A stretch of 64,000 bases of DNA, taken from NCBI GenBank assembly GCA_035284745.1, contig JAYKIL010000031.1:124001-188000 (forward strand). The letters run 5' to 3'. A model generated the notes under the pieces. The model did no database searches. It was not told the DNA's origin and saw only the letters and a program-made list of their open reading frames with translations. Numbering within the stretch: position 1 is the stretch's first letter; each line of letters begins with the position of its first letter. Below are positions 12,254-43,038 of the stretch, piece by piece. A program made the translations under genes and the position numbers. The stretch is from JAYKJB01 sp035284745 [NCBI: Candidatus Sericytochromatia bacterium] (GTDB lineage: Bacteria > Cyanobacteriota > Sericytochromatia > S15B-MN24).

Positions 12254-12264
12254 GAGAAGTGGCA

Positions 12265-13512
12265 GTGCCCATCCAACTCGTGAGTCTGGGCGGTATTTTT
12301 CTACTCGTTTTATTGGGTTGGCTGTTGTCCACCTCGCGACGAGACGTGAACTGGAAGACCGTGGGGGTGGGACTTGCGCTGCAATTTTCCCTGGCTCTGT
12401 TCATTCTGAAGTTTCCGCCCGGCCAGTGGCTCTTTCAAAAGGCCGGTGCGGGCGTGACGGGGTTGCTTGATTTTGCGAAACAGGGCGCAGGATTCGTATT
12501 CGGGAAGTTGATGGATGTGAGTTCGTTTGGCTTTGTTTTCGCTTTCCAGGTGCTTCCGACGATCATCTTTATGGCGTCTGTTATCTCGGTGCTCTACTAC
12601 CTGGGAATTGTCCAACGGGTGGTGGCTGCTTTGGCGTGGGTGATGCGAAAGTTGATGGGGACCTCCGGCCCGGAGAGTTTGTCCGCTGCTGCGTGTGTTT
12701 TCGTGGGGCAGGTCGAGGGCCCTTTGTTGGTGCGTCCCTACATCGCGACGATGTCGCGCTCGGAGCTGATGGCCTTGATGACGGGTGGCATGGCGACGAT
12801 CGCGGGCGGCGTGATGGCTGCATACATCGGCTTGTTAGGCGGGCAATGGGCGCCGGCTTTATTGGCCGCTTCACTGATGGGGGCGCCGGGCGGTCTGGCG
12901 ATGTCGAAACTGCTGGTTCCGGAAACGAGGGGCACCGCAGCGGAGGGCTCTGCCGATACCAATGACGCGATGATGAACGTGGAAATTCACGAAAGTTCAG
13001 TCATTGAGGCCGCTGCGAAAGGGGCCTCCGACGGCATGCATTTGGCTTTTACGGTGGCGGCGATGTTGCTGGCGTTTGTCTCTTTGGTGGCGATGCTGAA
13101 CGGCGGCCTGGGAATTCTTGGCAGTTGGTTGGGGATCGCAGGCCTGTCCCTCGAGAAGATTTTGGGCATTGCGTTTTTCCCTCTGGCCGTGATGCTGGGG
13201 GTCCCTTTGGCAGATGCGGGTGCGGTGGCGAATATGATCGGGACCAAGCTGGTCTTGAATGAATTTCTCAGTTACGCAGCCCTTTCCGACATGATTCTCA
13301 CGCGCACCATCAGCGAACGGGGGGCATTGATTGCGACCTTTGCATTGTGCGGTTTCGCGAACCTCAGTTCCATCGCACAGAATGTCGGGGGCATTGGTTC
13401 GATGGCGCCGGAGCGGCGCGGAGAATTGGCCCGCTTAGGCCCCCGGGCCATGATTGCAGGGGCGATGGCTTCGTGTATGTCTGCCGCGATGGCTGGGTTG
13501 CTTTTGACGTGA
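12265..13512 (+). CDS. Concentrative nucleoside transporter (CNT/NupC family), second copy
   Basis: Second CNT-family nucleoside transporter, 415 residues, paralogous over its whole length to the upstream gene (VGQVEGPLLVRPYIATMSRS and CGFANLSSIAQNVGGIGSM match the first copy's motifs). I set the start at the GTG at 12265 because AGGAG at 12252-12256 then has an 8-nt spacing; the GTG at 12259 would be too close. Its stop overlaps the start of the DprE1-like gene (TGATG). The pair could have different purine/pyrimidine preference or assemble separately; the sequence alone does not tell. Confidence 0.92.
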   Translation: MPIQLVSLGGIFLLVLLGWLLSTSRRDVNWKTVGVGLALQFSLALFILKFPPGQWLFQKAGAGVTGLLDFAKQGAGFVFGKLMDVSSFGFVFAFQVLPTIIFMASVISVLYYLGIVQRVVAALAWVMRKLMGTSGPESLSAAACVFVGQVEGPLLVRPYIATMSRSELMALMTGGMATIAGGVMAAYIGLLGGQWAPALLAASLMGAPGGLAMSKLLVPETRGTAAEGSADTNDAMMNVEIHESSVIEAAAKGASDGMHLAFTVAAMLLAFVSLVAMLNGGLGILGSWLGIAGLSLEKILGIAFFPLAVMLGVPLADAGAVANMIGTKLVLNEFLSYAALSDMILTRTISERGALIATFALCGFANLSSIAQNVGGIGSMAPERRGELARLGPRAMIAGAMASCMSAAMAGLLLT

Positions 13513-14870
13513 TGTCCGGCCCGGCTCGCAAGAACACTACACTTTCCGGCTGGGGTCGCTTCCCCACCTTGACCTGTCCCGTCACGCGTCCCGAACGACG
13601 CCGGGAACTTTCTCAAATACTGGCTTCCCAGAACGGCGCTTACATTGCACGGGGTTTGGGCCGAAGTTATGGGGACCAGGCGCTTAACACGGATGGGGGC
13701 GTCATCTTGATGACGCGCCTCAATCGGATGCTGTCTTTCGATGAAACGACCGGTGTCTTGGTGTGTGAAGCGGGCGTGACCTTGGCTGAAATTATCGAAG
13801 TCTTCTTGCCTCGGGGTTATTTTTTGTGGGTCACCCCGGGGACGAAGTTCGTGACAGTGGGAGGGGCGATCGCGAATGATGTTCATGGGAAGAATCATCA
13901 CGTGGACGGGAGTTTCGCGTCTTGCACCCTCGGCTTCACGCTGGAATTACCGAGCGGTGAGGTGGTGGAGTGTTCGCGGGAGGTGAATCCCGAGGTTTTT
14001 TGGGCGACTTTGGGCGGCGCTGGATTGACGGGCGTGGTTGTGATGGCCGCGATTCGCTTGCGGCGAGTCAATTCTGCTTGGATGCGGGTCGATTATCGAA
14101 AATTGACCGACCTCGACGCCACGCTGTCGGCCCTTGATGCGTTCGATGCGCATCACACCTATTCGGTGGCTTGGGTAGATACGCTGGCCCGTGGTGGCTC
14201 GTTGGGGCGCTCAATTTCCATGCACGGGGACCATCTGGATGCAGAGCGACTGCCCGCCTCGATTCGTAATCCGTTGTCGTCCCCTGGGAACAGGCAATGG
14301 GTGGTTCCCTTTGAGTTGCCCGTCAGTGGCCTTAATCGTTGGAGCGTCGGCGCCTTTAATGAGTTGTTTTGGCTCTCCCATCGGACCCAAATGGGACGCT
14401 TCGTGCCCTTGGAGCCGTACTTCTACCCGCTGGACCGGGTTCACCATTGGAACCGCTTGTATGGGGCCCGTGGCTTTGTGCAATATCAGGTGGCTTTCCC
14501 GCGTTCTCAGGGGCCTGCCGCCTTGCAACGTCTATTGGAGCGATTGTCGGTCGCACGCGCCGCGTCATTCTTGGCGGTGATTAAACGGTTTGGCGCCGGA
14601 AATTCTGGTTTGCTCTCGTTTCCATTGGAGGGCTTCACGCTCGCGCTGGATTTGCCTTGGCACCCTTCCTTGCCCGCTTTTTTGCGCGAACTCGATGCCC
14701 TGACACTCGCCTATGGGGGACGAATTTATTTTGCCAAGGATGCCTGTGCTGACGCTTCGACCGTTGCGATGATGTATCCACGTCTCAATGAATTCGTGGC
14801 ACTCAAGGCCCGGTTAGACCCAGAACAGAGGCTGGCCTCAATTTTGGGACGACGGGTGGGCCTATGCTAG
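13512..14870 (+). CDS. FAD-dependent DprE1-like oxidase
   Basis: Flavoenzyme of 452 residues matching decaprenylphosphoryl-beta-D-ribose 2'-oxidase (DprE1), which oxidises the ribose 2'-hydroxyl in the first of two steps that epimerise polyprenyl-phosphoryl-ribose to arabinose. Matching motifs include ARGLGRSYGDQA, VGGAIANDVHGKNHH (FAD and active-site His), GGAGLTGVVV, YPLDRVHHWNRLYGARGFVQ and, near the C-terminus, IYFAKDA with the conserved active-site Lys. The residue aligning with mycobacterial Cys387 (GWNICVDFP) is Ala here (GFTLALDLP). The ATG at 13512 overlaps the transporter stop and the 3' end overlaps the reductase gene by 7 nt, so 13512-16533 is one tightly coupled unit. Confidence 0.88.
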   Translation: MSGPARKNTTLSGWGRFPTLTCPVTRPERRRELSQILASQNGAYIARGLGRSYGDQALNTDGGVILMTRLNRMLSFDETTGVLVCEAGVTLAEIIEVFLPRGYFLWVTPGTKFVTVGGAIANDVHGKNHHVDGSFASCTLGFTLELPSGEVVECSREVNPEVFWATLGGAGLTGVVVMAAIRLRRVNSAWMRVDYRKLTDLDATLSALDAFDAHHTYSVAWVDTLARGGSLGRSISMHGDHLDAERLPASIRNPLSSPGNRQWVVPFELPVSGLNRWSVGAFNELFWLSHRTQMGRFVPLEPYFYPLDRVHHWNRLYGARGFVQYQVAFPRSQGPAALQRLLERLSVARAASFLAVIKRFGAGNSGLLSFPLEGFTLALDLPWHPSLPAFLRELDALTLAYGGRIYFAKDACADASTVAMMYPRLNEFVALKARLDPEQRLASILGRRVGLC

Positions 14871-30023: not shown

Positions 30024-30118
30024 TATTCCTCGTCGCAACCCATGTGCCAAGCATCTTGACCCTGTTCAGCGTATAATCTTAATGTCCCCAGGAAATGCAT
30101 GACAGGGGTGAAGTTGCC

Positions 30119-31438
30119 ATGGGCGTGCTCAATGGATGGAGACGAGAGTTCCTCCACTTCTTCGGCTCTCTGAAGCTCGCCATCGTTTTGCTGCTTGCGA
30201 TTGCCGCAGCCTCGATGGTTGGAACCGTCATTCCGCAGGACCAGGGGCCCTCTGTCATTGAAAGCGCCGCGTTTGCCGCGTGGCTGAAGACCGCCCTGCT
30301 CTCCATCCAAGCTTATGATGTTTATCATGCCGCGTGGTTCTTAGGGCTTCTGGCCTTGCTCTTTGTGAATCTTGCCGTTTGCACCTACTTACGGTTTCCT
30401 CCAACGTGGCGGCGTTATCGCTTGCAGAGGGTTCCTGCACCCGCCGTGTCTGGATTGTTGGAGGTCCAGCGCTTGGTGGCGCCCCCTGACCCTTTGCGTT
30501 TGGATAGTTTGCGAAAAAGGGGTTGGAATATTCAAATTCAGGGAGATGATCTTTATTTCGCGGAAAAGAATAAGTTCGTCAGAATGGCCCCCACTTTTAT
30601 TCACCTGAGTTTGTTTCTCATCATCGCAGGAGGAATTTGGGGGGGATTGGTGGGCATCAAGCATAGTTTGCCCGTGATGGTGGGAGAATCCTTGTCTTCG
30701 GACCAGATTGTGGAGACCGCTTACCAAAAAGGGCGTTTGCACGCGACACCGTCCCCGTTCGATGTGCGTCTCGACGCCTTCCGGATGGAGTTTCGCCCCT
30801 CCGGGATGGTCAAGCAATATTACTCTGACGTGACGGTGACGCCCCGCGATGGTCGGCCCCCGTTTCAGAAAACGCTGTGGGTGAACGAGCCATTGGTCCA
30901 TGATGGCTTCTATTTTTACCAGTCGTTTTGGGGTGTTGGCGCGGTGACGTGGCAGCGGGCGGGTCGAGAGGAAAAGCAAAAATTGACCCAGGCGAAGACC
31001 GGGGGTTACATGTCCGCTCCTTTTACGTTAGGGGGGCAAAGTCTTATTCTTTTCTTGCGTTCTTTGGAAGAACCCGCCATCTTGTTGCAAATCGATAACC
31101 TTCAACCGGTCGCCCAAGTGGTTCCTGGCTTGGCAGTTGAAGTGGCTGGACAGCCGTTCATGGTGTCGGGATATCATCTATATAGCGGGCTGGAAACAAA
31201 AACCGATCCTGGGATCCCATTGGTGTATCTGGGGTGTGGATTTCTCATTTTTGGTCTGGTGTTGCTGCCCTTTCGGCACTGTGAGGTCTGGGTGCGTCGG
31301 GACGATGCGGGTTGGTTGATGGGCGGCCGGACGCATCGTGGGCGGGTGATGTTAAAACGAGAATTATTGGGATTGGCTCACGTTTGGAATACACTGGAAT
31401 CACGCGGGGTGGATGAACCCGCAGGAGTGCGCGCGTGA
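30119..31438 (+). CDS. resB: Cytochrome c biogenesis protein ResB/Ccs1
   Basis: Component of System II cytochrome c maturation, 439 residues, which with CcsA delivers haem and ligates it to apocytochromes outside the inner membrane. It starts with the typical FFGSLKLAIVLLLAIAAASM helix and the following GTVIPQ motif, has further helices near residues 75-95 and 165-185, a large extracytoplasmic domain and a last helix near 380. ATG 30119 has AGGGG about 10 nt upstream; the ATG at 30095 is too close to its AGGA. It overlaps ccsA by 4 nt (GTGA). The caa3 oxidase subunit II and the CydA-like protein in this window are cytochromes c that need this system. Confidence 0.9.
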   Translation: MGVLNGWRREFLHFFGSLKLAIVLLLAIAAASMVGTVIPQDQGPSVIESAAFAAWLKTALLSIQAYDVYHAAWFLGLLALLFVNLAVCTYLRFPPTWRRYRLQRVPAPAVSGLLEVQRLVAPPDPLRLDSLRKRGWNIQIQGDDLYFAEKNKFVRMAPTFIHLSLFLIIAGGIWGGLVGIKHSLPVMVGESLSSDQIVETAYQKGRLHATPSPFDVRLDAFRMEFRPSGMVKQYYSDVTVTPRDGRPPFQKTLWVNEPLVHDGFYFYQSFWGVGAVTWQRAGREEKQKLTQAKTGGYMSAPFTLGGQSLILFLRSLEEPAILLQIDNLQPVAQVVPGLAVEVAGQPFMVSGYHLYSGLETKTDPGIPLVYLGCGFLIFGLVLLPFRHCEVWVRRDDAGWLMGGRTHRGRVMLKRELLGLAHVWNTLESRGVDEPAGVRA

Positions 31439-32337
31439 ACTTGATGATGTATGAAAATTGGGCGGTAACGCTGACGTTTTTTGCGGGGTTATCCGCACTC
31501 GTGTCATTTGTGCTGCATCTTGGCTTACGCAAAGAGGGCCTGAAGCGTTTGGGCCAGGCAGCGATGGGTCTTGCCTTGCTTGGCTCCGCCACGATTTTGG
31601 TGTTGCGGGGCGTGATCGCACAGCACGCGCCGTGGTCCAATCTGTGGGAGAGCATGATCACGATGCTCTTTGCCAGTTTGGTGTTCTACTTCGTGGTGGA
31701 AATTTGGTACAAGCCCCGTTTCTTTGGCGTGGCTGCGGCACCCCTGGTGATGGTTTTAATCGGGGGGGCGTCTATTCTGCCTGCGAGTTTCAAGGGCGCG
31801 GCGCCGTTGATGCCTGCGCTGCAGAGCTACTGGATCAAGATTCACGTTTTGCTGATTCTATTCAGTTATGCGGCCTTCACGATGTCGTTTGCCGCCGCGC
31901 TGGCCTACTTCTTTTTCGCTTGGAAGTCGCGGCGGGCAGAGCGCCTGGTTTTGGCGGGTGCTGGGGGCGTGGATGGCAACATGGCAGGCGGTGATAGCGC
32001 CGGTTTGATGCCCTTTAAGGAACAGTTGAGCTTCTTTGATGAATTGACTTATCGACTCATCTTGATGGGGTTCCCGCTGTTAATGATTGGAATTATTACC
32101 GGTGCGATGTGGGCCAACGGTGCCTGGGGCACGTACTGGAGTTGGGACCCCAAAGAGACGTGGTCTTTGATCACCTGGTTTGTTTATGCGGCCTATCTTC
32201 ACGCCCGCCTCACTCACGATTGGACGGGTGATCGCGCAGCCGGTCTTGCGGTGTGCGGGTTTGCTTCGATGGTGGTCACCTACATTGGGGTGAATTATCT
32301 CAGCTCAGGCCTTCACAGCTACGGGTTTATTCGTTAA
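31435..32337 (+). CDS. ccsA: Cytochrome c biogenesis protein CcsA/CcsB
   Basis: Haem-handling membrane protein of System II cytochrome c biogenesis, 300 residues with about eight hydrophobic segments. The WWD domain is evident in GAWGTYWSWDPKETWSLITW (about residues 226-245), flanked by conserved His residues in APWSNLWESM and in the C-terminal LSSGLHSYGF. The GTG at 31435 overlaps the resB stop, so the two subunits are coupled. The spacing and order resB-ccsA are the usual ones. An insert of low complexity (AGAGGVDGNMAGGDSAG, about residues 177-193) separates helices and is not typical. Confidence 0.92.
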   Translation: MNLMMYENWAVTLTFFAGLSALVSFVLHLGLRKEGLKRLGQAAMGLALLGSATILVLRGVIAQHAPWSNLWESMITMLFASLVFYFVVEIWYKPRFFGVAAAPLVMVLIGGASILPASFKGAAPLMPALQSYWIKIHVLLILFSYAAFTMSFAAALAYFFFAWKSRRAERLVLAGAGGVDGNMAGGDSAGLMPFKEQLSFFDELTYRLILMGFPLLMIGIITGAMWANGAWGTYWSWDPKETWSLITWFVYAAYLHARLTHDWTGDRAAGLAVCGFASMVVTYIGVNYLSSGLHSYGFIR

Positions 32338-32372: not shown

Positions 32373-33272
32373 TCACAGAATCGTGAGGTCCAAGAGTTTT
32401 TGATGATAACGCGCCAACCCTGCCGACAGGATGCCGTGGGCCAAAGAGGGGCGTCCCGTCGTGAGCCAGTGACCCCACTCGCCAGCGAAGCAGATGCGGT
32501 CGGATAAACGGGTGCTTCCCGTGGTCTCCACATCGAGGGTCCGATGGTATTCGAAATGACTGAGCCCGGGGCCCTCCACGCGCTCAATCCAGAAATACGG
32601 AGGGTTCCATACGACGACTTGGACTTGTAATGGATGTGCCCGCGGCAGCATCGCCCACTTCACGTGATAACGTAAACCATTTTGCAGGTGCGTTTCGCTG
32701 GTTTCTATTTGAAAGGGCAGTGACAAGGTCTGCAAAATGGCCCCGGGGCGTCCAAGAGAATGCGCAAGTCTCTCGCGAGAGACAGGAACGACACTGCTTC
32801 TTTCAACGGTTTCTGAATGGGGTAATCCATTGAGGCTCTTTTCGTTGAGTCGGGTCTCTATGGCTTGGCGAAGGGCTTCGACTGTGCCGATGGTTTTCTC
32901 CATCGCCCCCTTGTTTGAGCCTGTCGTCCCCAGCAGTCGTGCCTCCGGTTTCGCCCACTGTGCGAATTTGTAGGCCAAAGCGAGTGCCTCGTCGGGCGAG
33001 CGACTGGCCGCAACAAGGCCCGCCAGCGCGGTGAGATCTTGCCAGGCGCCTAACAGGGTTCGCGGTACCGGAATTTTGGCCGCGCGCAGTCTGCTGTCAA
33101 AAATTTCGGCCCGTTGTCGCGAGGCCTCTGCTGTGTTGATCCAAAATTCTCGTGCGTCAGCGTCCGCTACAAACGATTCTGAGCTGCTAAGAACGGTTTG
33201 GACGCCCAGTTCTGACAGCAGATTCTGTACATCATTCCACCAGGGCGAGGAGGCAGGAGAAAATTGAGACAT
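32373..33272 (-). CDS. Hypothetical protein with SRPBCC-like C-terminus
   Basis: Protein of 299 residues, family not firmly recognised. Residues 1-170 are helical and of unknown type. The last 110 residues have the pattern of SRPBCC (START/polyketide cyclase-like) ligand-binding domains: LQNGLRYHVKWAMLPRAHPL, then PPYFWIERVEGPGLSHFEYH and TTGSTRLSDRICFAGEWGHW, with the family's core of a GPF/W...H.H..T.L.D segment. Such domains bind hydrophobic ligands, for example haem, quinones or lipids. It lies between the cytochrome c biogenesis and oxidase genes but on the opposite strand, so a link to respiration is speculative. It has no signal peptide. Confidence 0.65.
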   Translation of the reverse strand: MSQFSPASSPWWNDVQNLLSELGVQTVLSSSESFVADADAREFWINTAEASRQRAEIFDSRLRAAKIPVPRTLLGAWQDLTALAGLVAASRSPDEALALAYKFAQWAKPEARLLGTTGSNKGAMEKTIGTVEALRQAIETRLNEKSLNGLPHSETVERSSVVPVSRERLAHSLGRPGAILQTLSLPFQIETSETHLQNGLRYHVKWAMLPRAHPLQVQVVVWNPPYFWIERVEGPGLSHFEYHRTLDVETTGSTRLSDRICFAGEWGHWLTTGRPSLAHGILSAGLARYHQKLLDLTIL

Positions 33273-33422: not shown

Positions 33423-34358
33423 GTGACCGATCATTCTCACCACTCCCACGCTTCGCCGGTTCCTGCGGGAACGGATGTGGCCGCACTGGATCCACACGTT
33501 CTGGAACACGAAATCGCGAGTATTTTTCCGTCGATTACGGGGTTTTCAACCGGATTGATGTTATTCGGTATCGGGGCCACGTGGAACGAGTTTACGTGGG
33601 GACCCGCCGCGATCGTCTTGGGGTTGTCCATCCTCATTTGCGCCATGGTGGGCTGGTGGTGGGAACTGGTTCGCGACAACAGATTGGAAGAGAACAGCCT
33701 GATCGGAACACCCGATGACGCGCGGAAGGGCTTGCGGATAGGATTTGGATTTTTTATTGGCTCGGAAGTCATGTTTTTTGCAGCCTTCTTTGCCTACTAC
33801 TTTTACGCACGCGCGATGGCGCCTGTTTGGCCTCCCGAGGGTTTCGCGAAGCTTCCGTGGGACATCGCGTTGGTCAACACGGCGTTGCTGGTGGTCTCCG
33901 GTTTCTTCTATATGCGGGGGGAACACCACATTGAACACGGCACCCCCCAACGTTCGATGAAGCATATGGTCTTGGCTTTGATCTTGGGATTTGTTTTTTT
34001 GGCAGTGCAAGCGCAGGAATGGATGCATCTGATCCACGAGGGCTTTACGGTGCAGTCTGGCCCGATGGGAACAGCCTTTTATCTTTTGACAGGTTTTCAC
34101 GGTTTTCACGTGATTATCGGGGCTATTTTTATCACGGTGGTGACTGCTCGAATCGCGTTGGCCCACTTCACCCCTCAAAAACACTTTGCGATGACGGCCG
34201 CCGGTTGGTATTGGCATTTTGTTGACGTGGTGTGGATCGGTCTTGTGGTGTGTGTGTACCTCTATGACTATGTTCGTGATTATTTTGTAGGGCCGGCTAA
34301 GGCCGCCTGGTTGATGATTGAACCATTGTTGGCATCTGCCTCGCAGATCCTGTCCTGA
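33423..34358 (+). CDS. coxC: caa3-type cytochrome oxidase subunit III
   Basis: Haem-copper oxidase subunit III of 311 residues with about seven membrane helices, starting with a His-rich cytosolic tail (MTDHSHHSHAS). Family motifs include GFFIGSEVMFFAAFFAYYFY, EHHIEHGTPQRSM and LLTGFHGFHVIIGAIF, followed by AAGWYWHFVDVVWIGL with conserved Trp and His. The GTG start at 33423 follows an AGGAG about 10 nt upstream. In the standard order subunits are II-I-III; here III is first, then I (14 nt later), then II. It is an inner-membrane subunit that supports proton uptake and stability of subunit I. Confidence 0.92.
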   Translation: MTDHSHHSHASPVPAGTDVAALDPHVLEHEIASIFPSITGFSTGLMLFGIGATWNEFTWGPAAIVLGLSILICAMVGWWWELVRDNRLEENSLIGTPDDARKGLRIGFGFFIGSEVMFFAAFFAYYFYARAMAPVWPPEGFAKLPWDIALVNTALLVVSGFFYMRGEHHIEHGTPQRSMKHMVLALILGFVFLAVQAQEWMHLIHEGFTVQSGPMGTAFYLLTGFHGFHVIIGAIFITVVTARIALAHFTPQKHFAMTAAGWYWHFVDVVWIGLVVCVYLYDYVRDYFVGPAKAAWLMIEPLLASASQILS

Positions 34359-34371
34359 ACGGAGCTTTCGT

Positions 34372-36006
34372 ATGTATTCCGACCACGTTCAAACTACTCA
34401 TCCTGTCGCTGATGGTCACGGGCACGGAGAGCCTGAAGGAGGCCACGGACACGCGAAGCGTCATCCTGTTCTTGATTGGATGATGACCACTGATCATAAA
34501 AAAATTGGTGTGATGTATCTGTGGACATCCTTCATCTTCTTCCTCATCGGCGGCGCCATGGCGTTGATGATCCGTGTGCAGTTGATGCAGCACAACAACA
34601 CTGCGTTGACCCCCGATTTTTATAACCAAATGATGACCATGCACGCCACGGTCATGATCTTTCTCGCCATCATCCCTGCGGTGACCGGTTTCGGAAACCT
34701 GGCCTTGCCCTTGCACCTCGGCGCACGGGACGTGGCCTTCCCTCGCCTGAATGCGTTGGGTTTTTGGTTGGTCCCCGCAGGCGGTCTGGTGTTTCTTTCG
34801 AGCTTTTTGTTGGGTGGGGCCAGTCAAAATGGCTGGACTGCCTATCCACCCCTTGCAAATTCGGCGTACTCTCCTGGGATAGGGGTGGATCTGTGGGTCT
34901 TTGGTGTCCACTTGGTCGGTACGAGTTCGATTACGGGCGGTCTTAACTTTATTGTCACCATTTTCAACATGCGCGCACCCGGTGTGACCTTCCACAAGAT
35001 GAGTTTGTTCGCTTGGGCCTGGTTGGTGACCTCTTGGCTGCAGGTCATTGCGACGCCCGTCCTGGCGGGTGCGGTGACGATGTTGCTGCTTGACCGTAAT
35101 ATCGGCACGAGTTTCTTCCGGGCCGAAGCCGGGGGTGACCCGATCCTGTTTCAGCACCTTTTCTGGTTCTACTCCCATCCGGCTGTTTACATTATGATCT
35201 TGCCGGTCTTTGGGATCGTTTCGCAGATTATTCCTGCGTTTTCGCAGAAAAAAATCTTCGGATACCTTCCGATTGCCTACTCTTCCGTTGCCATTGGCCT
35301 GTTTGGCCTCGTGGTGTGGGCCCATCATATGTTTGCGACGGGTATCAATCCTTGGGTTTTGACGTTCTTCATGATTGTGACGCTGGCGATCGCCGTGCCG
35401 ACTGGGGTGAAGATTTTCTCGTGGATTGCCACGATGTGGGGTGGCGTCGTGGAATTCAAGACCCCGATGCTATTTTGTATAGGTTTTATTGCATTCTTCA
35501 CCATTGGGGGCCTGTCCGGCATTATGCAAGGCTCCATTCCATTTGACATCCAAGTTTCCGGGACCTATTTTATCGTGGCTCACATCCACTACGTGCTTTT
35601 CGCGGGTTCTGCAGTGGGCTTGATTGCGGGCTTCTATTACTGGCTTCCCAAGATGACGGGCCGGATGTATCACGAGGGTCTGGGGCAGTTGCATTTCTGG
35701 CTGACCATGATCTCGATGAATCTTGCCTTCTTCCCGATGCACTTTCTCGGCTTGCAGGGGATGCCCCGCCGTGTCGCCTATTACGCGCCTCAATTTGAGA
35801 CGATTAATCAGTTCATCGGCTATTCCGCGATGGTCATGGGCTTCGCTCAGTTGCTCATTATTGCTCAAATTATCTACAGCTTGAAATTCGGAGAGAAGGC
35901 GGGGAATGACCCGTGGAATCATCATCCAGACACCAAAACCTTTGAGTGGGATATTCCTTCTCCTCCTCCTGCTTACAACTTCGAAAAACTTCCTGTCGCG
36001 CGCTAG
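34372..36006 (+). CDS. coxA: caa3-type cytochrome oxidase subunit I (A2-type)
   Basis: Catalytic subunit of the terminal oxidase, 544 residues and 12 helices, reducing O2 to water while pumping protons. Haem and copper ligands are all present: His91 (TMHATVM) and His406 for low-spin haem, His404 for high-spin haem, His269, His318 and His319 for CuB, with Tyr273 for the His-Tyr crosslink. The helix-VI sequence is FYSHPAVYIMILP: the Glu of the GHPEVY motif is Ala and a Tyr-Ser pair (267-268) precedes the His. This is the mark of the A2 class of haem-copper oxidases. The N-terminus is His/Gly-rich. ATG 34372 follows a GGAG. Confidence 0.95.
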   Translation: MYSDHVQTTHPVADGHGHGEPEGGHGHAKRHPVLDWMMTTDHKKIGVMYLWTSFIFFLIGGAMALMIRVQLMQHNNTALTPDFYNQMMTMHATVMIFLAIIPAVTGFGNLALPLHLGARDVAFPRLNALGFWLVPAGGLVFLSSFLLGGASQNGWTAYPPLANSAYSPGIGVDLWVFGVHLVGTSSITGGLNFIVTIFNMRAPGVTFHKMSLFAWAWLVTSWLQVIATPVLAGAVTMLLLDRNIGTSFFRAEAGGDPILFQHLFWFYSHPAVYIMILPVFGIVSQIIPAFSQKKIFGYLPIAYSSVAIGLFGLVVWAHHMFATGINPWVLTFFMIVTLAIAVPTGVKIFSWIATMWGGVVEFKTPMLFCIGFIAFFTIGGLSGIMQGSIPFDIQVSGTYFIVAHIHYVLFAGSAVGLIAGFYYWLPKMTGRMYHEGLGQLHFWLTMISMNLAFFPMHFLGLQGMPRRVAYYAPQFETINQFIGYSAMVMGFAQLLIIAQIIYSLKFGEKAGNDPWNHHPDTKTFEWDIPSPPPAYNFEKLPVAR

Positions 36007-36021
36007 GAGCCGGTCGAAACC

Positions 36022-37311
36022 ATGCATCATTCATCTTACCCCTCGTCCGGCCATAGGTTGTTTCAACTGGCTGTTGGCGTAATCCTTCCACTGGTTTTTG
36101 CTTCAAGTGCGTCTGCCGCACCATTCGGTTACATGGACTCTGTCACCGTTTTTGGTGACATTAACCTCAATCTATACAACCTGATGATGTGGATCTCCAT
36201 CGCGATTTTGGTCGTGGTGGAGGCTGCCCTGGTGTACGCCATTTTTAAATTTCGTAAGCGCGCGGGCGAGAATCGGGCACCGGAATCGTGGTCTCACAAT
36301 ACGACGCTAGAAATCGTTTGGACGGTGATTCCGTTTATTTTGCTCATTATTATCTGCGTGCCTACGTTCCAAGGCCTTCTCTATATGGTGAACATTCCGA
36401 AGAAGCCAGATCTGGTCTTGGAGGTGGTGGGGCGGCAATATTTTTGGGAATATCGCTTTCCTGAATTAAATGCCACCTTCAATTCGCGGACACGGTTGGG
36501 TGATGTCATCGCCATTAAGAAGGGGACCCCGGAGTGGGACGACATTGCCCTGCATTTGCCTATCAATCAGAAGATTTTAGTGAAGTTTACGGCCGCTGAT
36601 GTGATCCACTCGTGGTGGGTGCCGGCTTTTGGGATGCAGCAGATGACGACCCCTGGGAATCTGGTGCAGTTTCCTTTGGAAATTAAGGAGGAAGGTCGGT
36701 GGCAAGGCGCGTGTGCCTATCTATGCGGACCACTTCACGGGGCTATGGACATCAAGGTGATGGGGGTGAACCGTCCGGCGTTCGATGCCTGGATTGCCTC
36801 TCATCAGGCTCAAGGGGAGATTGCGCCGTTTGAAAGTGTCGGGAAGATCGGTGCCGTGTACCAAAAACCCAAGGCTTCTGAGCACAGCGAGGGAGACTCC
36901 CATGGGGCGGTAGCTGCCACGCATTCAGAGGCAAAGGTGGCTGTGTCACCGGCAGAAAATACGGCTGAGGCCCCCGCTGAAGACTTGGCGGCCCTCGCCA
37001 AGGACGGCGCCGCATTGTACGCGGCGCGCTGCGCTGGGTGTCACCAACCAACGGGCGACGGGTTACCAGGACTTTTCCCTCCTTTGGCGGGCGCAGAGCA
37101 AGTCAACGGTCCCGATGAGGCGTTGGTGGACATTCTGTTGAAGGGCTTAAACGGCCCGATCACCGTCAAAGGTGGGCAGTATAATGGTCAAATGCCAGCG
37201 TTTGCAGACTTGTCTGACAAGGAGATTGCGTCTGTACTCAATCACTTGCGTAGCAGCTGGGGTAACAACGGTAAGTTGATATCGCCGGCGCAGGTCAAGG
37301 CTCGGCGGTAG
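36022..37311 (+). CDS. coxB: Cytochrome oxidase subunit II fused to cytochrome c (caa3 type)
   Basis: Subunit II of 429 residues. A signal peptide and two membrane helices (about 55-75 and 98-118) are followed by the CuA domain with ligands His196, Cys231, Cys235, His239 and Met242 (GACAYLCGPLHGAM); the middle position of the Cys-x-x-x-Cys loop is Tyr rather than the usual Glu. A Pro/Ala/Glu-rich linker (about 283-325) joins a C-terminal cytochrome c domain with CAGCH at 337-341 and the axial Met391 (GQMPAF). This fused c domain makes the enzyme a caa3 type that can be reduced directly by a soluble carrier. Haem attachment depends on the resB-ccsA pair upstream. Confidence 0.95.
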   Translation: MHHSSYPSSGHRLFQLAVGVILPLVFASSASAAPFGYMDSVTVFGDINLNLYNLMMWISIAILVVVEAALVYAIFKFRKRAGENRAPESWSHNTTLEIVWTVIPFILLIIICVPTFQGLLYMVNIPKKPDLVLEVVGRQYFWEYRFPELNATFNSRTRLGDVIAIKKGTPEWDDIALHLPINQKILVKFTAADVIHSWWVPAFGMQQMTTPGNLVQFPLEIKEEGRWQGACAYLCGPLHGAMDIKVMGVNRPAFDAWIASHQAQGEIAPFESVGKIGAVYQKPKASEHSEGDSHGAVAATHSEAKVAVSPAENTAEAPAEDLAALAKDGAALYAARCAGCHQPTGDGLPGLFPPLAGAEQVNGPDEALVDILLKGLNGPITVKGGQYNGQMPAFADLSDKEIASVLNHLRSSWGNNGKLISPAQVKARR

Positions 37312-37321
37312 GCCGAAAGGA

Positions 37322-37350
37322 CCCGCGGCCCAGGCCGCGGGTTTTTTGTT
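37322..37350 (+). terminator. Rho-independent terminator after coxB
   Basis: A perfect 9-bp GC inverted repeat (CCCGCGGCC at 37322-37330 and GGCCGCGGG at 37333-37341) is followed by a TTTTTT run at 37342-37347. It lies between coxB and the small membrane protein gene, so the oxidase structural genes and the ctaAB-cox11 group may be partly separate transcripts. Confidence 0.85.
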
Positions 37351-37375
37351 TACGGCGAGGGGAGTGATTCGTTCA

Positions 37376-37534
37376 ATGGCAGAAAATCAACAAGCGCCCG
37401 ATCCTTATGATCCCTTGGTTGCTCGTCGTAATCGGCGGTTGGGGGCGGTGATTCTGGGCATCGTCTTGTTTGTGGTGTATCTTAGTTATGTGCAGAGGGG
37501 AGCCTTGTTCCACGTGTTGTTCAAGGTAGGCTAA
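37376..37534 (+). CDS. Small membrane protein in the cox cluster
   Basis: A 52-residue protein (MAENQQAPDPYDPLVARRNR and one helix, LGAVILGIVLFVVYLSYVQ). ATG 37376 follows AGGGGAG about 10 nt upstream; a longer frame from 37346 is possible but would overlap the terminator. It has the shape of the small single-helix subunits or assembly proteins often found with haem-copper oxidases, but no specific family is recognised. Its stop overlaps the start of the ctaA-ctaB fusion (TAATG), which argues for translational coupling and therefore for a role in the same oxidase. Confidence 0.7.
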   Translation: MAENQQAPDPYDPLVARRNRRLGAVILGIVLFVVYLSYVQRGALFHVLFKVG

Positions 37535-39402
37535 TGATGACCACAGACAAGGCGGTCTTCTCTCGCATTCGTGTGGGGGCTTTTTGTTTACTGGCCCTCA
37601 TTGCCGTTCAGGTTGTTGTCGGCGCGACGGTCCGCGCGACAGGCTCCGGGATGGGATGCCCGGACTGGCCGCTGTGTCACGGCCAGTGGTTGCCGGCCTG
37701 GAATTTTGAGTCGGTTTTGGAATACGCCCATCGTCTGGTGGGAGCCGTGGTTTCGGTTTCGTTGATACTTTTGACAGCGGCCGTGTTCCTGTCCACTCGC
37801 CTTCGCTCCGCCTTCGCCGGTTTGGCCGGGTTGGGGCTCTTGTTGTTGATCATTCTGGTCTCTTTCGGCGCGATGACTGTCGCCTACGATATGCCGCCTG
37901 CAGTCGTTGCAACTCACCTCGAACTGGCGGCGTTGGTCGCTTTGGTCTGGCTGACCTTGGCCTTAAGGGCTGGGGAAGTGTTGGGTGTGAGACGTCAGAT
38001 TCCTCCGCCGGGACTGTACCGTTGGGCGGCCATTTTGGCTTTCCTGGCGTGCTTTTTTCAGCTATTTTTGGGGGCGATGGTGTCGGTTTCGCATGCAGGT
38101 CTTGCGTGTCCAGATTTTCCGACGTGTTTCGGGATGTGGATTCCTCCCCTGGTTGGAAATGTCGGTGTGCAAGTGGTCCATCGGTTGGGCGCGTTGGTCG
38201 TGGCGGTCTGCGTCTTCGCTTTGGTGGCTTTGTTCGAAATTCAAGGGGCTGAATGGGCCCGCGGTTGGGTCCGATTGGCGGGCCTTCTTTTGGTGGCGCA
38301 GATTGGATTGGGGGCCGCCAATGTCTTTTACGAAGTCCCCCCGCTTCTTTCGGTGTTGCATCTGCTGACAGGGGTCAGTCTCTTTTTTACTCTGTACATT
38401 GTGGTGTATGCCTGTTGGCCTTCTCTTTGGCTGGTCAAGACAACTTTGGAAGAAGGCGAATCTGCTTCCTTGCCTCTTCCACTGGAAAAGCCTCGTCGAC
38501 CCCTCAAAGAGCGCCTTGCCGCGTATTACCAATTGACCAAGCCGACCATTGTGATGCTGGTGGTACTGACCGGATTGCCGGCCATCATGATCGCCTCAAA
38601 TGGCCGTGTGGATGTCAGGCTTGCGCTGGCTGCTCTATTCGGAACGGCGTGTGCAGCCGCCTCTGCGGCTGTTTTTAATCAGTTCTTTGAGCGCGAAAGG
38701 GATAAACAAATGTCCCGCACTGCGACTCGCCCGATACCGGCGGGGCTCGTGACGCCTCGGGAGGCGTTGGTCTTTGCGATTCTTTTGGGAGCCTGTGCGG
38801 CCTTTACGCTGATGACCTACACCAATTGGCTGGCGACGGCCTTAGCGTTTGGGAGTCTATTGTTTTATGGCTTCTTCTATACCCTGGTTCTCAAAGGTTC
38901 TTCCCCGCAGAATATAGTGATTGGCGGAGCTGCGGGTGCCAGTGCGCCGTTGATTGGTTGGGCTGCCGTCACGGGGGAGGTGGGTTGGCCGGCTTGGGTC
39001 ATGTTCGCCATCGTTTTCTTTTGGACGCCGCCGCATTTCTGGGCGCTGGCGATTTATCGCCTTGACGACTATGTCGCAGCTCGCGTTCCAATGTTTCCAG
39101 TCGTTTACGGGATTCCTGCGACGGTGCGTTGGATTGCTATTTATGCATTGATGTTGGTTCCTTTGACTCTGTTCCTCGTTCCTTTGGGGGCCGCGGGGCC
39201 CATTTATTTCTTTTCTGCGCTTTTCTTAGGTCTGGGCTTCTTGGTGATGGCGTGGCGCGTGCTTCTGACAGAGGATCGGCGGGATGCCATTAAGTTGTTT
39301 GCTTATTCGATTGTCTATACATTGGCGCTCTTTACAATGTTGACGCTGGACGCCGCGTTGGGCGGCCCGCGGATCGGAGCGTTGGTGGCCTGGGGTTTTT
39401 AG
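37534..39402 (+). CDS. Fused haem A synthase (CtaA) and protohaem farnesyltransferase (CtaB)
   Basis: Membrane protein of 622 residues carrying two consecutive enzymes of haem A synthesis. Residues 1-300 are a CtaA/COX15 domain: GMGCPDWPLCHGQWLPAW (39-56), EYAHR (63-67) and conserved His at 130, 216 and 276, with the second half repeating the pattern (ACPDFPTCFGMW). A linker of about 25 residues follows. Residues 326-622 are a CtaB (haem O synthase) domain: LTKPTIVMLVVLTGLPA, NQFFERERDKQMSRTATRPI (first Asp motif) and FFWTPPHFWALAIYRLDDY. CtaB makes haem O and CtaA oxidises it to haem A for coxA. The order CtaA-CtaB in one chain may channel haem O. Confidence 0.93.
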   Translation: MMTTDKAVFSRIRVGAFCLLALIAVQVVVGATVRATGSGMGCPDWPLCHGQWLPAWNFESVLEYAHRLVGAVVSVSLILLTAAVFLSTRLRSAFAGLAGLGLLLLIILVSFGAMTVAYDMPPAVVATHLELAALVALVWLTLALRAGEVLGVRRQIPPPGLYRWAAILAFLACFFQLFLGAMVSVSHAGLACPDFPTCFGMWIPPLVGNVGVQVVHRLGALVVAVCVFALVALFEIQGAEWARGWVRLAGLLLVAQIGLGAANVFYEVPPLLSVLHLLTGVSLFFTLYIVVYACWPSLWLVKTTLEEGESASLPLPLEKPRRPLKERLAAYYQLTKPTIVMLVVLTGLPAIMIASNGRVDVRLALAALFGTACAAASAAVFNQFFERERDKQMSRTATRPIPAGLVTPREALVFAILLGACAAFTLMTYTNWLATALAFGSLLFYGFFYTLVLKGSSPQNIVIGGAAGASAPLIGWAAVTGEVGWPAWVMFAIVFFWTPPHFWALAIYRLDDYVAARVPMFPVVYGIPATVRWIAIYALMLVPLTLFLVPLGAAGPIYFFSALFLGLGFLVMAWRVLLTEDRRDAIKLFAYSIVYTLALFTMLTLDAALGGPRIGALVAWGF

Positions 39403-40068
39403 ATGATGAAGGAACCGCACCTTCCAGATTCCCCGAAACAGCATCGCAACCTCACCGGAATAGTGATTGCGGTGGTGACGGTGATGGCCGTTCTTCCCTG
39501 GGTTTATGCGCCTTTGTATCGAAAGGTTTGCGGAGTTTTGGGTATCGCCTTGCCCAAAGAACAGAAGCCGGCCGAAGTTTTGGCTCGGATCGCTCGCGAG
39601 GGGATCGGCGCGGATCGCGCGGACGAAAACACCTCGTTGGTGAATTTCATGGGCGTGAGCGGCCAGCTGCCCATCGATATTCGGCCATTGGAGAGGCGCT
39701 TATGGGTGAAAACAGGGGAGATGGTCGTTGTTTTGTATCGCCTGACGAATTTGACACCGCGTGATTTGGACTATCGGGCGGTTCACATGGTTTTACCGCA
39801 GGACGACACGTCGTTTGAATTAATTAAGTGCTTTTGTGATGACCATCGAATTCTGAAAGCCAGCGCCAGCGAGGACTTACCCTTGGTTTTTCGCCTGACC
39901 AAGGCCGTCGAGGGTGATGCGGGTCTCACGGTGAATTACACGATTTTTGATTACAACCCCAACAAAAATAAGGCACCTCAGACAGCGCCCCAGATCGGTC
40001 AGACGATGTGGATGCTGGGGGCTACGGCTTTACCCCGGGTTAAATGGGATGGACTTTCCTTACTTTGA
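39403..40068 (+). CDS. Cytochrome oxidase assembly protein CtaG/Cox11-like
   Basis: Protein of 221 residues, with one membrane helix (IVIAVVTVMAVLPWVYAPLY, about residues 21-40) and a soluble extracytoplasmic domain. It matches Cox11/CtaG, which inserts copper into the CuB centre: the segment ending in APLYRKVCGVLG after the helix, VNFMGVSGQLP with the following acid-rich part, and the CFC motif in FELIKCFCDDHRILKASAS. The copper-binding cysteines of the CFC are present. It starts directly after the ctaAB stop (0 nt gap) and overlaps the next gene by 20 nt. It is clearly diverged from classical proteobacterial Cox11. Confidence 0.8.
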   Translation: MMKEPHLPDSPKQHRNLTGIVIAVVTVMAVLPWVYAPLYRKVCGVLGIALPKEQKPAEVLARIAREGIGADRADENTSLVNFMGVSGQLPIDIRPLERRLWVKTGEMVVVLYRLTNLTPRDLDYRAVHMVLPQDDTSFELIKCFCDDHRILKASASEDLPLVFRLTKAVEGDAGLTVNYTIFDYNPNKNKAPQTAPQIGQTMWMLGATALPRVKWDGLSLL

Positions 40069-41380
40069 ATTTCCTTGGCTCGGCAATCGATGGTTGATTG
40101 CGATCGTCGCGACACTCCACGTTTTGGTAAACCATAGCGCGGCCATTGGAGGCTCGCTGCTCGTCGTTCTGATGGAGAGACGGGGCCTGAAGGAATTGAA
40201 TGCCGATTGGGATGCCGCCGCCTATCGATTGGCGTTCATATTTTTTCTATTGACAACGACGGTGGGTGCGCTTTCGGGGGTGGGGATTTGGTTTACGGTC
40301 ATGGTAAGTGCGCCGCAAGCCCTTTCTGCATTGCTCTACATTTTCTTTTGGGCCTGGTTCATTGAGTGGGGGGTATTTATTGCCGAAGTGGGGATGGTGC
40401 TCGCCTATTTTCTCTCCTGGAACCGTTTTAAATCCCGGGATCGCCACTTGGCATTGGGTTGGGCCTACGTTCTGACATCATTTCTCACGCTCGCCATCAT
40501 CTCGGGGATTCTGGGAGCGATGTTAACACCAGGATCGTGGTTGGAAGAGCGCGGATTCTGGGGCGCCTTTTTCAATCCCACCTATTTACCTCAACTGATT
40601 CTGCGCTCCGGTCTTGCGTTAGCCTTAGCGGCCGTTCTAGGTTTGCTTTTGCAGGGGAGGGTGGCGTCTGAGAACATTCGCGGAGACTTTCAGCGTTTAT
40701 GTGGTCAGTTTTTACTGATGGCGCTGCCTTTGATGGCAGTTGGGGGAGCGGGGTATTTGTGGGTCCTGCCGGAGCGTGTTAAGGCCCTCCTTCCGACGGC
40801 CTTAATGACGCAACGCTATGCGGATTGGGCTTCGCTGGGTCTTGGCTTCCAGGTTGCCGCGTGTGTCGCTGTGGGGATTTTGGGGTTAATGACCCTTCGC
40901 CGCGACCGCCTGGTGCCCCGTTTGGGCGTGACTCTTGTCGCGGTGCTGCTATTGGGTTGGGTGGGTCATTTCGAGCGGGTTCGCGAATTTGTCCGTAAAC
41001 CCTTTTTGATTCCCGGTTATATGTACGCCAACGGCATTCGAGTGTCGGAGGTTCCTCGCCTGAACCGGGATGGTTTGCTTGGGGGGGCGCGTTGGGCCGA
41101 GGTATCCGGGGTCGTGCCTGGAAAAGAGATAGCGGCCGGGCGCGCGCTTTTTCGCCTCCAGTGCGCTGCGTGTCATACGTTGTCGGGGCCGAATGCACTG
41201 GGTGATAAATTCGCAGGCCGTGATGTTGATGCAGTGGTTGGATTTTTGAGCGTACAACACCAGGTCTATCCATTCATGCCGCCATTTGTGGGGACAGAGG
41301 TGGAAAAACGTGCACTGGCCGAGTTTTTGGCGGGGCCTCCTTCAGAGGAAGTCGCACGGAACCCGGGCGTCAAGCCGTGA
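40049..41380 (+). CDS. CydA-like membrane protein fused to cytochrome c
   Basis: Protein of 443 residues with about eight membrane helices followed by a C-terminal cytochrome c domain. The membrane part resembles cytochrome bd oxidase subunit I: TTVGALSGVGIWF, then WFIEWGVFIAEVGMV with two conserved Glu (106 and 113) like the CydA proton-path glutamates, and candidate haem ligands His24 and His29 near the N-terminus. The C-terminus carries CAACH (372-376) with an axial Met in YPFMPPF. A cytochrome c tail on a bd-like core is not the standard quinol oxidase. ATG 40049 (MDFPYFEF) is used; the frame from 39947 overlaps cox11. The next gene, also membrane-embedded, overlaps by 4 nt. Confidence 0.78.
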   Translation: MDFPYFEFPWLGNRWLIAIVATLHVLVNHSAAIGGSLLVVLMERRGLKELNADWDAAAYRLAFIFFLLTTTVGALSGVGIWFTVMVSAPQALSALLYIFFWAWFIEWGVFIAEVGMVLAYFLSWNRFKSRDRHLALGWAYVLTSFLTLAIISGILGAMLTPGSWLEERGFWGAFFNPTYLPQLILRSGLALALAAVLGLLLQGRVASENIRGDFQRLCGQFLLMALPLMAVGGAGYLWVLPERVKALLPTALMTQRYADWASLGLGFQVAACVAVGILGLMTLRRDRLVPRLGVTLVAVLLLGWVGHFERVREFVRKPFLIPGYMYANGIRVSEVPRLNRDGLLGGARWAEVSGVVPGKEIAAGRALFRLQCAACHTLSGPNALGDKFAGRDVDAVVGFLSVQHQVYPFMPPFVGTEVEKRALAEFLAGPPSEEVARNPGVKP

Positions 41381-42375
41381 ACGCGATGCCTCATGACTTG
41401 CCGCTGCCGTTGCCTCTCGCGGTCGGTAAGCCCGCGTTGGTGATCGCGTTCCTGGTGCATATTGTATTCGTGAACCTCATGCTTGGAGGCACTGTCCTCG
41501 CTCTTCACGCTCATTTTTTGGGGCAAAAACGCCCGTGTTTTGAACGGTTGGCGGGTGAGTTGATGACGACGGTGACGGTGCACAAGAGCTTGGCTGTTGT
41601 TTTGGGGGTAGGTCCCTTGCTGTTGCTCAGCGTGGTCTATACAGTGCCTTTCTATACCAGCAGTGCGCTGATAGCGCCCGCTTGGCTTTCGGTGCTGTGG
41701 CTTGTGACGCTCTCCTTCTCGTTGTTGTATGCCTATAAGTATGGTTGGTCGGGTTGGAAGGGACGACACCCGCGTTGGCATATCGCCACTGGGGTGAGCG
41801 GCCTTTTGGTTCTATTGTGTGTACCATTGATTTATTTGACCAACACACAGCTAATGCTGGACCCCGCTGCGATGGCTGGGCGACCGAGTTTTTTCCGCGC
41901 GCTTTGGGAAGTGGGGAACGTTATTCCGCGTTATTTCCATTTTTTATTGGCAAGCCTTGCGGTGGCCGGTCTCTGGGTCATGGGCTGGTGGGGACGAGAG
42001 CGTTCAGATTGGTCGGCTGAGGATCGCGTGTCCCTGATGCGCTTCGGCGGATATTGGGCAATTTTTGCGACGGCGCTGCAGTTCGTTGCGGGCCCGGTGG
42101 TTTTGTTTACCCTTCCTCGAGGGGCTTTAACGGGTTTAGCTGTGGCGTTTTTAGCGTTGGGGGTTCTCACTGGTTTGGGAGCGATCTTTTTGTTGCTGGA
42201 CACTGTGAGGGGCAAGGATCGATACGCGTGGTCCGTATTTTTAATTGCGACCACGGTCGTATGTATGGGAACCACCCGGCATTTGATTCGTGAGTCCCTC
42301 CTTGAACTGCGTCTCAGCCAGGATATTGGCAGGACCGCAGTTTATCCTGCTGCCTGGGCGCATTTCCGCGGCTGA
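41377..42375 (+). CDS. Polytopic membrane protein, partner of the CydA-like cytochrome
   Basis: Protein of 332 residues with about eight hydrophobic segments, not a firmly recognised family. His residues inside or next to helices (for example FLVHIVFVNLMLGGTVLALH near the N-terminus, TVHKSLAV and RYFHFLLASLAVAG) could ligate haem. It is translationally coupled to the CydA-like/cytochrome c gene (GTG at 41377 overlapping its TGA; ATG 41386 is an alternative) and therefore probably forms one membrane complex with it, as CydB does with CydA, but I see no CydB signature. It may be a quinone- or cytochrome-oxidising partner. Confidence 0.65.
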   Translation: MNAMPHDLPLPLPLAVGKPALVIAFLVHIVFVNLMLGGTVLALHAHFLGQKRPCFERLAGELMTTVTVHKSLAVVLGVGPLLLLSVVYTVPFYTSSALIAPAWLSVLWLVTLSFSLLYAYKYGWSGWKGRHPRWHIATGVSGLLVLLCVPLIYLTNTQLMLDPAAMAGRPSFFRALWEVGNVIPRYFHFLLASLAVAGLWVMGWWGRERSDWSAEDRVSLMRFGGYWAIFATALQFVAGPVVLFTLPRGALTGLAVAFLALGVLTGLGAIFLLLDTVRGKDRYAWSVFLIATTVVCMGTTRHLIRESLLELRLSQDIGRTAVYPAAWAHFRG

Positions 42376-42459
42376 TTCACTTCTCTTGTGGCTCGCCTGT
42401 TGGCGGGGCCGGGGCGAGGTACTAGATTAATTGAGTGGGGGGCGCCGGGAGGTCACAGG

Positions 42460-43038
42460 ATGGGGGCAAACAACTTTCTGCCTGGATTGCATCCGCACGT
42501 GGCTGTGGCCGTGTTTGTAAACCCGATGCAGTTGTCTTTAGGCCTTCAAGAACTGATTGCGAGCGGATTTAAAGAGGAAAATATATCCATCCTGGCACGC
42601 AACGACAAGCAACTTGAAAAAGTTTTGAGCAAGGTGCACGGAGGAGAACGTGTGTGGCCGGAGTCTCCCTGTTCTTTGTCGCAAGAGACGGAGGCCACGG
42701 GTTTCCAAGAGGCTCGTGAGATGGCCTTGGGGGCTGGGCTTGCGATTCTGGCAGGCATGACGTCATTCGCACTGCCCGGCCTCGGGGCTTACCTTTGGGC
42801 CGCGGGGCCTCTGGCTTTGTTGGCGCACGGCTTGTCGTTGGGCATTGGTGGGGCCGGTCTGGGGGCGGTTGTGGGAGCTATTTTGGACGAGCGTTCAACA
42901 GAGGCGCAGCGTAAGCGGTTTGAGCAAATGATCATCGCAGGACATTGGCTTTTGGTCGCTCACGGAAACTACGAGCAGGTGACGCGCACAAGCGGGGTGT
43001 TGCGCGCGTCCCCCGCCATCGAGGTGGAGGTTTTTTAG
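42460..43038 (+). CDS. YflT/general-stress-like protein with glycine-zipper helices
   Basis: Protein of 192 residues. The N-terminal part (HVAVAVFVNPMQLSLGLQEL and IASGFKEENISILARND, about residues 12-49) has the alpha/beta pattern of the YflT heat-induced stress protein or related domains. The middle is a glycine-rich hydrophobic hairpin (ALGAGLAILAGMTSF and LGIGGAGLGAVVGAIL) that could insert into or sit on the membrane. ATG 42460 has GGGAGG 7 nt upstream, so the frame from 42388 is rejected. It lies downstream of the respiratory block, about 84 nt after it, and converges with the aldehyde dehydrogenase gene. Function unknown. Confidence 0.65.
   Translation: MGANNFLPGLHPHVAVAVFVNPMQLSLGLQELIASGFKEENISILARNDKQLEKVLSKVHGGERVWPESPCSLSQETEATGFQEAREMALGAGLAILAGMTSFALPGLGAYLWAAGPLALLAHGLSLGIGGAGLGAVVGAILDERSTEAQRKRFEQMIIAGHWLLVAHGNYEQVTRTSGVLRASPAIEVEVF

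What the first reader, a model, noticed from the sequence alone, without database searches (positions are those of the whole stretch)
40049..42375. bd-like membrane protein with a fused cytochrome c and a helical partner, in the cox cluster
The first protein combines CydA-like helices (Glu106, Glu113, His24, His29) with a C-terminal CAACH cytochrome c; the second is a coupled membrane protein without CydB signature. They lie directly behind the caa3 assembly genes. They may form a new cytochrome c or quinol oxidoreductase complex that feeds or bypasses the caa3 oxidase.
Basis: partly seen in the sequence, partly recalled or inferred. Interest (0 to 1): 0.65.

Follow-up and report, generated by a model that had tools for sequence, protein, structure and literature searches.

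The report
Cytochrome-c-fed bd-type oxidase pair
Two neighbouring genes at the end of a caa3 oxidase operon most likely encode a second oxygen-reducing enzyme, a relative of cytochrome bd that takes electrons from cytochrome c instead of quinol; the enzyme family seems to be recognised already, but its partner subunit and this gene arrangement look little studied.

Summary
40049-41380 encodes a CydA-superfamily membrane protein with a C-terminal mono-haem cytochrome c; 41377-42375 encodes a constant partner. Both genes overlap their neighbours behind cox11 at the end of a caa3 operon. The oxygen-site residues are kept: in the window's clade His24, Glu106 and Glu113 in 34 of 34, Glu313 in 33. 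Quinol features are gone: no Q-loop, and the haem b558 His186 position is Phe or Leu. In a quick tree the protein falls outside quinol CydA and outside 14-helix OR-N-like proteins. This fits the published OR-C family (Murali 2021, not held; label partly recalled), so most of the claimed novelty goes. It keeps an invariant first-helix His and mostly a His at the b558 position; 24 of 33 clade members (window included) carry a second cytochrome c on it, missing here. The pair stands alone in 27 of 27 other loci examined; the caa3 linkage was seen only in the window and two Cyanobacteria-affiliated relatives. Most likely a cytochrome c:O2 oxidoreductase that bypasses caa3. Activity and haem content are inferred.

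The parts
40049..41380 (+). subunit A: CydA-superfamily membrane protein fused to a C-terminal mono-haem cytochrome c
41162..41176 (+). CAACH haem c motif (residues 372-376) of subunit A; likely sixth ligand Met410
   Evidence: C372, C375, H376 and M410 in 34 of 34
41377..42375 (+). subunit B: CydA-type paralogue, candidate haem ligands His28 and His188; lacks the C-terminal cytochrome c that 24 of 33 clade members have
39403..40068 (+). cox11/CtaG copper assembly protein; overlaps the start of subunit A by 20 nt
37534..39402 (+). CtaA (haem A synthase)-CtaB (haem O synthase) fusion
   Evidence: PF02628 + PF01040
36022..37311 (+). caa3 oxidase subunit II with fused cytochrome c
34318..36006 (+). 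caa3 oxidase subunit I (longest ORF; true start may lie inside)
33423..34358 (+). oxidase subunit III
30095..32337 (+). ResB and CcsA cytochrome c maturation proteins, upstream
   Evidence: PF05140, PF01578

Best explanation
Subunits A and B form a cytochrome c:O2 oxidoreductase of the cytochrome bd superfamily, probably of the cytochrome-c-linked OR-C family. Electrons come from a periplasmic cytochrome c (supplied in near relatives by a complex III-type enzyme) to the haem c of A, and from there to a pair of high-spin haems held in the A core by His24, Glu106 and Glu313, where O2 is reduced to water with protons from the cytoplasmic side. B is a CydA-type paralogue in the place of CydB; it shapes the interface and may carry a b haem of its own. 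In this lineage the pair is probably expressed with caa3 and gives the cell a second, copper-free exit from the same cytochrome c pool. Shown: genes, overlaps, predicted folds, conserved residues, loss of quinol features, paralogy. Inferred: haem placement, donor, O2 as substrate, proton path, complex formation.
For: A profile of 13 A proteins matches Geobacillus CydA, E=1.3e-11 over helices 1-5; my profile-profile run gives A vs CydA a pairwise E of 2.6e-20. Model Z 24.1-26.3 to 10 bd entries. The alignment puts His24 on Gth His21 and Glu106/113 on Glu101/108; E. coli Glu99 (Gth Glu101) and Glu445 are described as haem ligands and His186/Met393 as b558 ligands (passages, PMC6853902). In this clade His24, Glu106, Glu113 are kept in 34 of 34 and Glu313 in 33; the His186 position is F in 32, L in 2. 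The helix 6-7 loop has 18 residues in the model. Haem c motif plus Met410 in 34 of 34. B is the next gene in 33 of 34; the 34th (L002) has a partial B match beside masked DNA. B vs A E=2.2e-17, B vs CydA E=1.4e-9, B vs CydB 6% probability. G038, the nearest relative, has a complex III-type cytochrome b and no PF01654 match.
Against: No biochemical test of this family was found in the listings. Glu313 is matched to Glu378/445 by eye on the E-x-x-R-x-P box; no tool alignment reached it. Haem type (b or d) is unknown. NO or peroxide reduction cannot be told from O2 reduction by sequence. CydA and CydB profiles also fail to match each other, so B's distance from CydB is a ranking only. The cytochrome c part of the model is of low confidence. 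With the long row L026 included, the c-fused cluster has a support of only 29. The single protein misses PF01654 altogether.
Confidence: 0.7

Rival explanations
1. A quinol-linked enzyme: quinol oxidase or cytochrome c:quinone oxidoreductase that feeds caa3, like an alternative complex III.
For: bd-like proteins of nitrite oxidisers were discussed as possible alternative complex III (passage in PMC3578206). ACIII subunits are the next-best fold after the bd entries (Z about 17). The operon is shared with caa3.
Against: No Q-loop, no b558 His in A. bd entries stand clearly above ACIII for both subunits. Residues of an oxygen-reductase haem pair are kept. G038 and G001 have a complex III-type cytochrome b.
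Confidence: 0.13
2. A nitric oxide or peroxide scavenging reductase using the same haem pair, rather than a respiratory O2 reductase.
For: Canonical bd enzymes also handle NO and peroxide (recalled). In L007 a superoxide dismutase lies beside the regulator upstream of the pair. In the window a sub-threshold YflT stress-protein match follows B (E=0.006).
Against: Position in a caa3 operon in this lineage points to respiration. Among the 18 window proteins scanned with Pfam no NO or peroxide enzyme was found; the other window genes were not scanned.
Confidence: 0.1
3. Accessory subunits of the caa3 oxidase itself: A and B bind caa3 and pass electrons to it, the haem c of CoxB replacing the lost haem c of B.
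For: Genes behind cox11 in the window, L210 and L001. B lacks haem c in these three.
Against: The pair stands without the window's cox genes in 27 of 27 other loci examined and in G050. B also lacks haem c in five of those loci (those of L078 and L130-L133).
Confidence: 0.05

Closest known systems
OR-C family of the cytochrome bd superfamily (Murali, Gennis, Hemp, ISME J 2021; not held; named in passages of PMC13189123, PMC10839748, PMC11707229)
   Same: bd superfamily member outside qOR, hence without the quinol site; cytochrome c fused to CydA (recalled, from no call)
   Different: Reference sequences and profiles were not available, so no subfamily assigned; whether a CydA-type partner with its own haem c is described there could not be checked
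Canonical quinol bd oxidase CydAB (qOR)
   Same: CydA fold, first-helix His, Glu99/Glu107/Glu445 counterparts
   Different: No Q-loop, no His186 in A, fused haem c, partner CydA-like instead of CydB
OR-N CydAA' / bd-like oxidases of Nitrospira and Nitrospina (passages, PMC10839748, PMC3578206, PMC12342949)
   Same: Two CydA paralogues assumed to form one complex, cytochrome c as likely donor; OR-N5 CydAA' lies directly behind alternative complex III genes in Nitrospirales, another case of a bd-like pair attached to a respiratory operon
   Different: The OR-N-like proxies found here are about 590-640 aa with 11-13 predicted hydrophobic segments and no haem c motif, in a separate cluster; true OR-N references were not compared
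Alternative complex III (ActC/ActF, NrfD type)
   Same: Related helix arrangement, cytochrome c traffic
   Different: Weaker fold match (Z about 17 vs 25); NrfD-like subunits have no redox cofactors (start of abstract of PMC8076601, listed)

Membership tests
Cytochrome bd superfamily (CydA) | CydA sequence and fold homology | tested here: met
   E=1.3e-11 to 5doq_A; pairwise E=2.6e-20 profile-profile; Z 24.1-26.3
Cytochrome bd superfamily (CydA) | Active-site residues: first-helix His, Glu99, Glu107, Glu445 counterparts | tested here: met
   His24, Glu106, Glu113 34 of 34; Glu313 33 of 34. Glu313-Glu445 match by eye
Cytochrome bd superfamily (CydA) | Score over Pfam PF01654 cut-off | tested here: not met
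   No PF01654 row for P0001 at E<=10; 2 of 13 alignment members match, best E 2.8e-12. I read this as a limit of the model, not a missing residue
Canonical quinol bd oxidase (qOR) | Q-loop between helices 6 and 7 | tested here: not met
   18 residues between the long helices in the model
Canonical quinol bd oxidase (qOR) | b558 ligand His186 in CydA | tested here: not met
   Aligned position is Leu185; F 32, L 2 of 34
Canonical quinol bd oxidase (qOR) | CydB partner | tested here: not met
   B matches A and CydA profiles, not CydB; a ranking, as CydA and CydB do not match each other either
OR-C | bd core lacking the quinol site | tested here: met
OR-C | Cytochrome c fused to the CydA subunit (feature recalled) | tested here: met
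OR-C | Groups with OR-C reference sequences | not testable with these tools
   References not held. Own tree: 56 rows cluster (SH-aLRT 96) apart from qOR and OR-N-like; two of them (L089, L091) have no CxxCH
OR-N | About 14 helices, groups with OR-N | tested here: inconclusive
   A has 8 long membrane helices plus haem c and lies apart from 6 OR-N-like proxies chosen by length and hydrophobicity; no true references, quick tree with long-branch warnings

The most novel reading that the evidence does not exclude
The partner is itself a haem-binding CydA-type subunit (His28 with His188 or His302), so the enzyme is a two-core cytochrome c oxidase in which the low-spin b haem has moved from CydA to its paralogue. 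In this Cyanobacteria-affiliated lineage it works as one unit with caa3, whose haem c has taken over from the lost haem c of B.
Probability: 0.15. Interest if true: 0.7.

Novelty: new member of a known kind. Interest (0 to 1): 0.4.

Why it matters
Pfam and NCBIfam see only a cytochrome c in this A and nothing significant in this B, so annotation with them would miss a copper-free oxidase. Profile hits to the wider group are common in four sampled phyla. In the window's lineage, which I take from its relatives to be allied to Cyanobacteria and perhaps non-photosynthetic (not tested), it adds a respiratory exit beyond the oxidases named for Sericytochromatia in the passages I read (PMC6349859). 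The split of candidate haem ligands between two CydA paralogues makes the origin of CydA/CydA' pairs testable.

Tried and rejected
Quinol site in A: rejected for want of Q-loop and b558 His. CydB partner: rejected by profile comparison, though CydB also fails to match CydA there, so only the ranking counts. General cox-cydA-like linkage: the window's cox genes were not found (blastp E<=1e-8) in 27 of 27 further loci, within flanks of about 0.3 to 10 kb per side; G050, of the same phylum sample, has the pair without other window genes on its 8.7 kb contig. ACIII-like subunits: PF03916 absent from G038 and G001 (these may be incomplete), fold weaker. RNA landmarks to name the organism: none over gathering score; placement rests on synteny with G038 and L001.

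Rows dropped: of 136 A-like ORFs, 119 after removing copies and 115 after a length filter; of 110 B-like, 97 then 83. In the clade count 35 were assigned and one (L094, 592 aa, no haem c, OR-N-like) was dropped, leaving 34. The 115-row A set used still holds such rows. For the tree 57 of the 115 A rows, 13 of 49 CydA and 6 OR-N-like proxies were used. The context check used 29 loci, a part of those fetched. In some searches only up to 5 candidates per genome were scored, so those tallies are lower bounds.

Full report
What is there. The window holds ResB and CcsA (30095-32337), then cox3, cox1, cox2 with a fused cytochrome c, a CtaA-CtaB fusion and cox11 (33423-40068), and right behind them two more genes. 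Subunit A (40049-41380) starts 20 nt inside cox11; subunit B (41377-42375) starts on the stop codon of A. The features in the finding (His24, His29, Glu106, Glu113, CAACH) are in the sequence.

Subunit A is a CydA relative. Pfam and NCBIfam see only the cytochrome c end. Relatives from public genomes (12 loci confirmed of 29 candidate stretches) give a profile that finds Geobacillus CydA at E=1.3e-11, and 2 of the 13 alignment members match PF01654. A profile of 115 A cores, a few of them OR-N-like, matches a profile of 49 canonical CydA at a pairwise E of 2.6e-20. The AlphaFold model (mean pLDDT 76) aligns to 10 bd entries at Z 24.1-26.3 over 300-314 residues, rmsd 3.5-3.6; the best other fold is alternative complex III at Z 17.1.

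What is kept and what is lost. By the alignment, His24 falls on Gth His21, Glu106 on Glu101, Glu113 on Glu108, and Leu185 on His186. PMC6853902 (passages) names Glu99 (Gth Glu101), Glu445 and His186/Met393 as haem ligands in E. coli; the role of the first-helix His is recalled. Glu313 in ERVREFVRKP matches the EVGRQP box of CydA by eye. In the window's clade (34 A proteins) His24, Glu106, Glu113, Glu309, Arg312, the haem c motif and Met410 are invariant, Glu313 is kept in 33, and the His186 position is Phe in 32 and Leu in 2. In the wider set of 115, His24 is kept in 111, Glu106 in 109, Glu113 in 113, Glu313 in 109. The loop between helices 6 and 7 has 18 residues in the model. So the O2-reducing haem pair looks intact, and the quinol site and b558 of CydA look absent.

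Subunit B is a CydA paralogue, not CydB. Profile-profile comparison gives B vs A E=2.2e-17, B vs CydA E=1.4e-9, and 6% probability to CydB; CydA vs CydB also gives 6%, so the result ranks kinship and does not exclude a remote tie. The model of B (mean pLDDT 81) aligns to 10 bd entries, best chain each, at Z 23.1-25.1; the eight best Foldseek rows are subunit I chains, but for two entries (7d5i, 8b4o) only the other chain is in the list shown (which chain is which is partly recalled). B has no conserved glutamate but keeps His28, on the first-helix His of CydA, in 83 of 83 sequences and 33 of 33 in the clade, and His188, on CydA His186, in 67 of 83 and 31 of 33. A haem in B is therefore possible but untested. 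In 24 of 33 clade members (window included) B ends in its own cytochrome c; 9 have no CxxCH: the window, L025, L001, L078, L130-L133, and L053, which is cut by a contig end.

Place in the superfamily. In a quick tree of 76 rows over 204 columns, canonical CydA (13 rows, SH-aLRT 99), OR-N-like proteins of about 600 aa (6 rows, 98) and the c-fused set (56 rows, 96; two of them, L089 and L091, lack CxxCH) separate. The long row L026 lies outside the 56, and with it the group has a support of only 29. The window's protein sits in a 22-row subclade (93) with L025 and L001 as nearest. The program warns of long branches, so deep order is unsure. Held papers divide the superfamily into qOR, OR-C and OR-N (passages in PMC13189123, PMC10839748 and PMC11707229), and PMC13189123 ties the quinol site to qOR; the defining paper is not held, so the OR-C label rests on features and recall. 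A word search for OR-C, OR-N and similar terms found 3 papers, none on subunit structure of OR-C in the passages I read. Two further searches listed no paper on such a pair that I recognised from titles and abstracts.

How widespread. Profile matches at E<=1e-15, which include a second, often di-haem c subclade and some OR-N-like rows (six of the Bacteroidota genomes, about 590-640 aa), were in 61 of 132 genomes of the phylum of L002, 69 of 297 of L004, 27 of 294 of L009 and 23 of 296 of L003. In the phylum of L001, 17 of 117 genomes matched at E<=0.001: three full length (G001, G038, G050), one distant (G088), and 13 by the cytochrome c part only.

Context. Gene order from upstream of ResB to past B is conserved with G038 (locus L210, A 66% identical), except that the gene behind B differs, and cox1 to B with L001. 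In 27 other loci none of the window's cox genes was found near the pair, within flanks of about 0.3 to 10 kb. In three Bacteroidota loci checked, of five clade members held from that phylum, a SCO1/SenC protein and an AraC-type regulator lie upstream. G038 has a complex III-type cytochrome b and no PF01654 match; G001 has both.

Verdict. The most likely reading is a cytochrome c:O2 oxidoreductase of the OR-C kind, made of two CydA-type subunits, used as a second exit from the cytochrome c pool beside caa3. It is a new member of a known kind with an unusual operon and a partner that deserves study; the activity is untested.

Noticed in passing
37534-39402: CtaA and CtaB (haem A and haem O synthases) are fused in one 622-aa frame; a full-length match of the same kind is in L210 and L001.
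   Followed up: partly
42388-43038: Small protein with a sub-threshold YflT match (E=0.006) behind subunit B; also behind B in L001, but not matched in L210, where the next matched gene behind B is the aldehyde dehydrogenase.
   Followed up: partly
32373-33272: Gene on the minus strand between ccsA and cox3 with no Pfam match at E<=0.001, kept at the same place in L210 at 30% identity.
   Followed up: no
L003:7945-9847, L005:7975-9867, L007:5766-7695: SCO1/SenC and an AraC-type regulator precede the oxidase pair in the three Bacteroidota loci checked, with a small unassigned protein between them (scanned in L003 only); odd for a presumably copper-free oxidase.
   Followed up: partly
L079:1501-4191: An A-type protein of 896 aa with eight CxxCH motifs, a multihaem extension of the same core.
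   Followed up: no
11021-14870: A Na+-dependent nucleoside transporter (11021-12253) is followed by two large overlapping frames; possible tandem copies, not examined.
   Followed up: no
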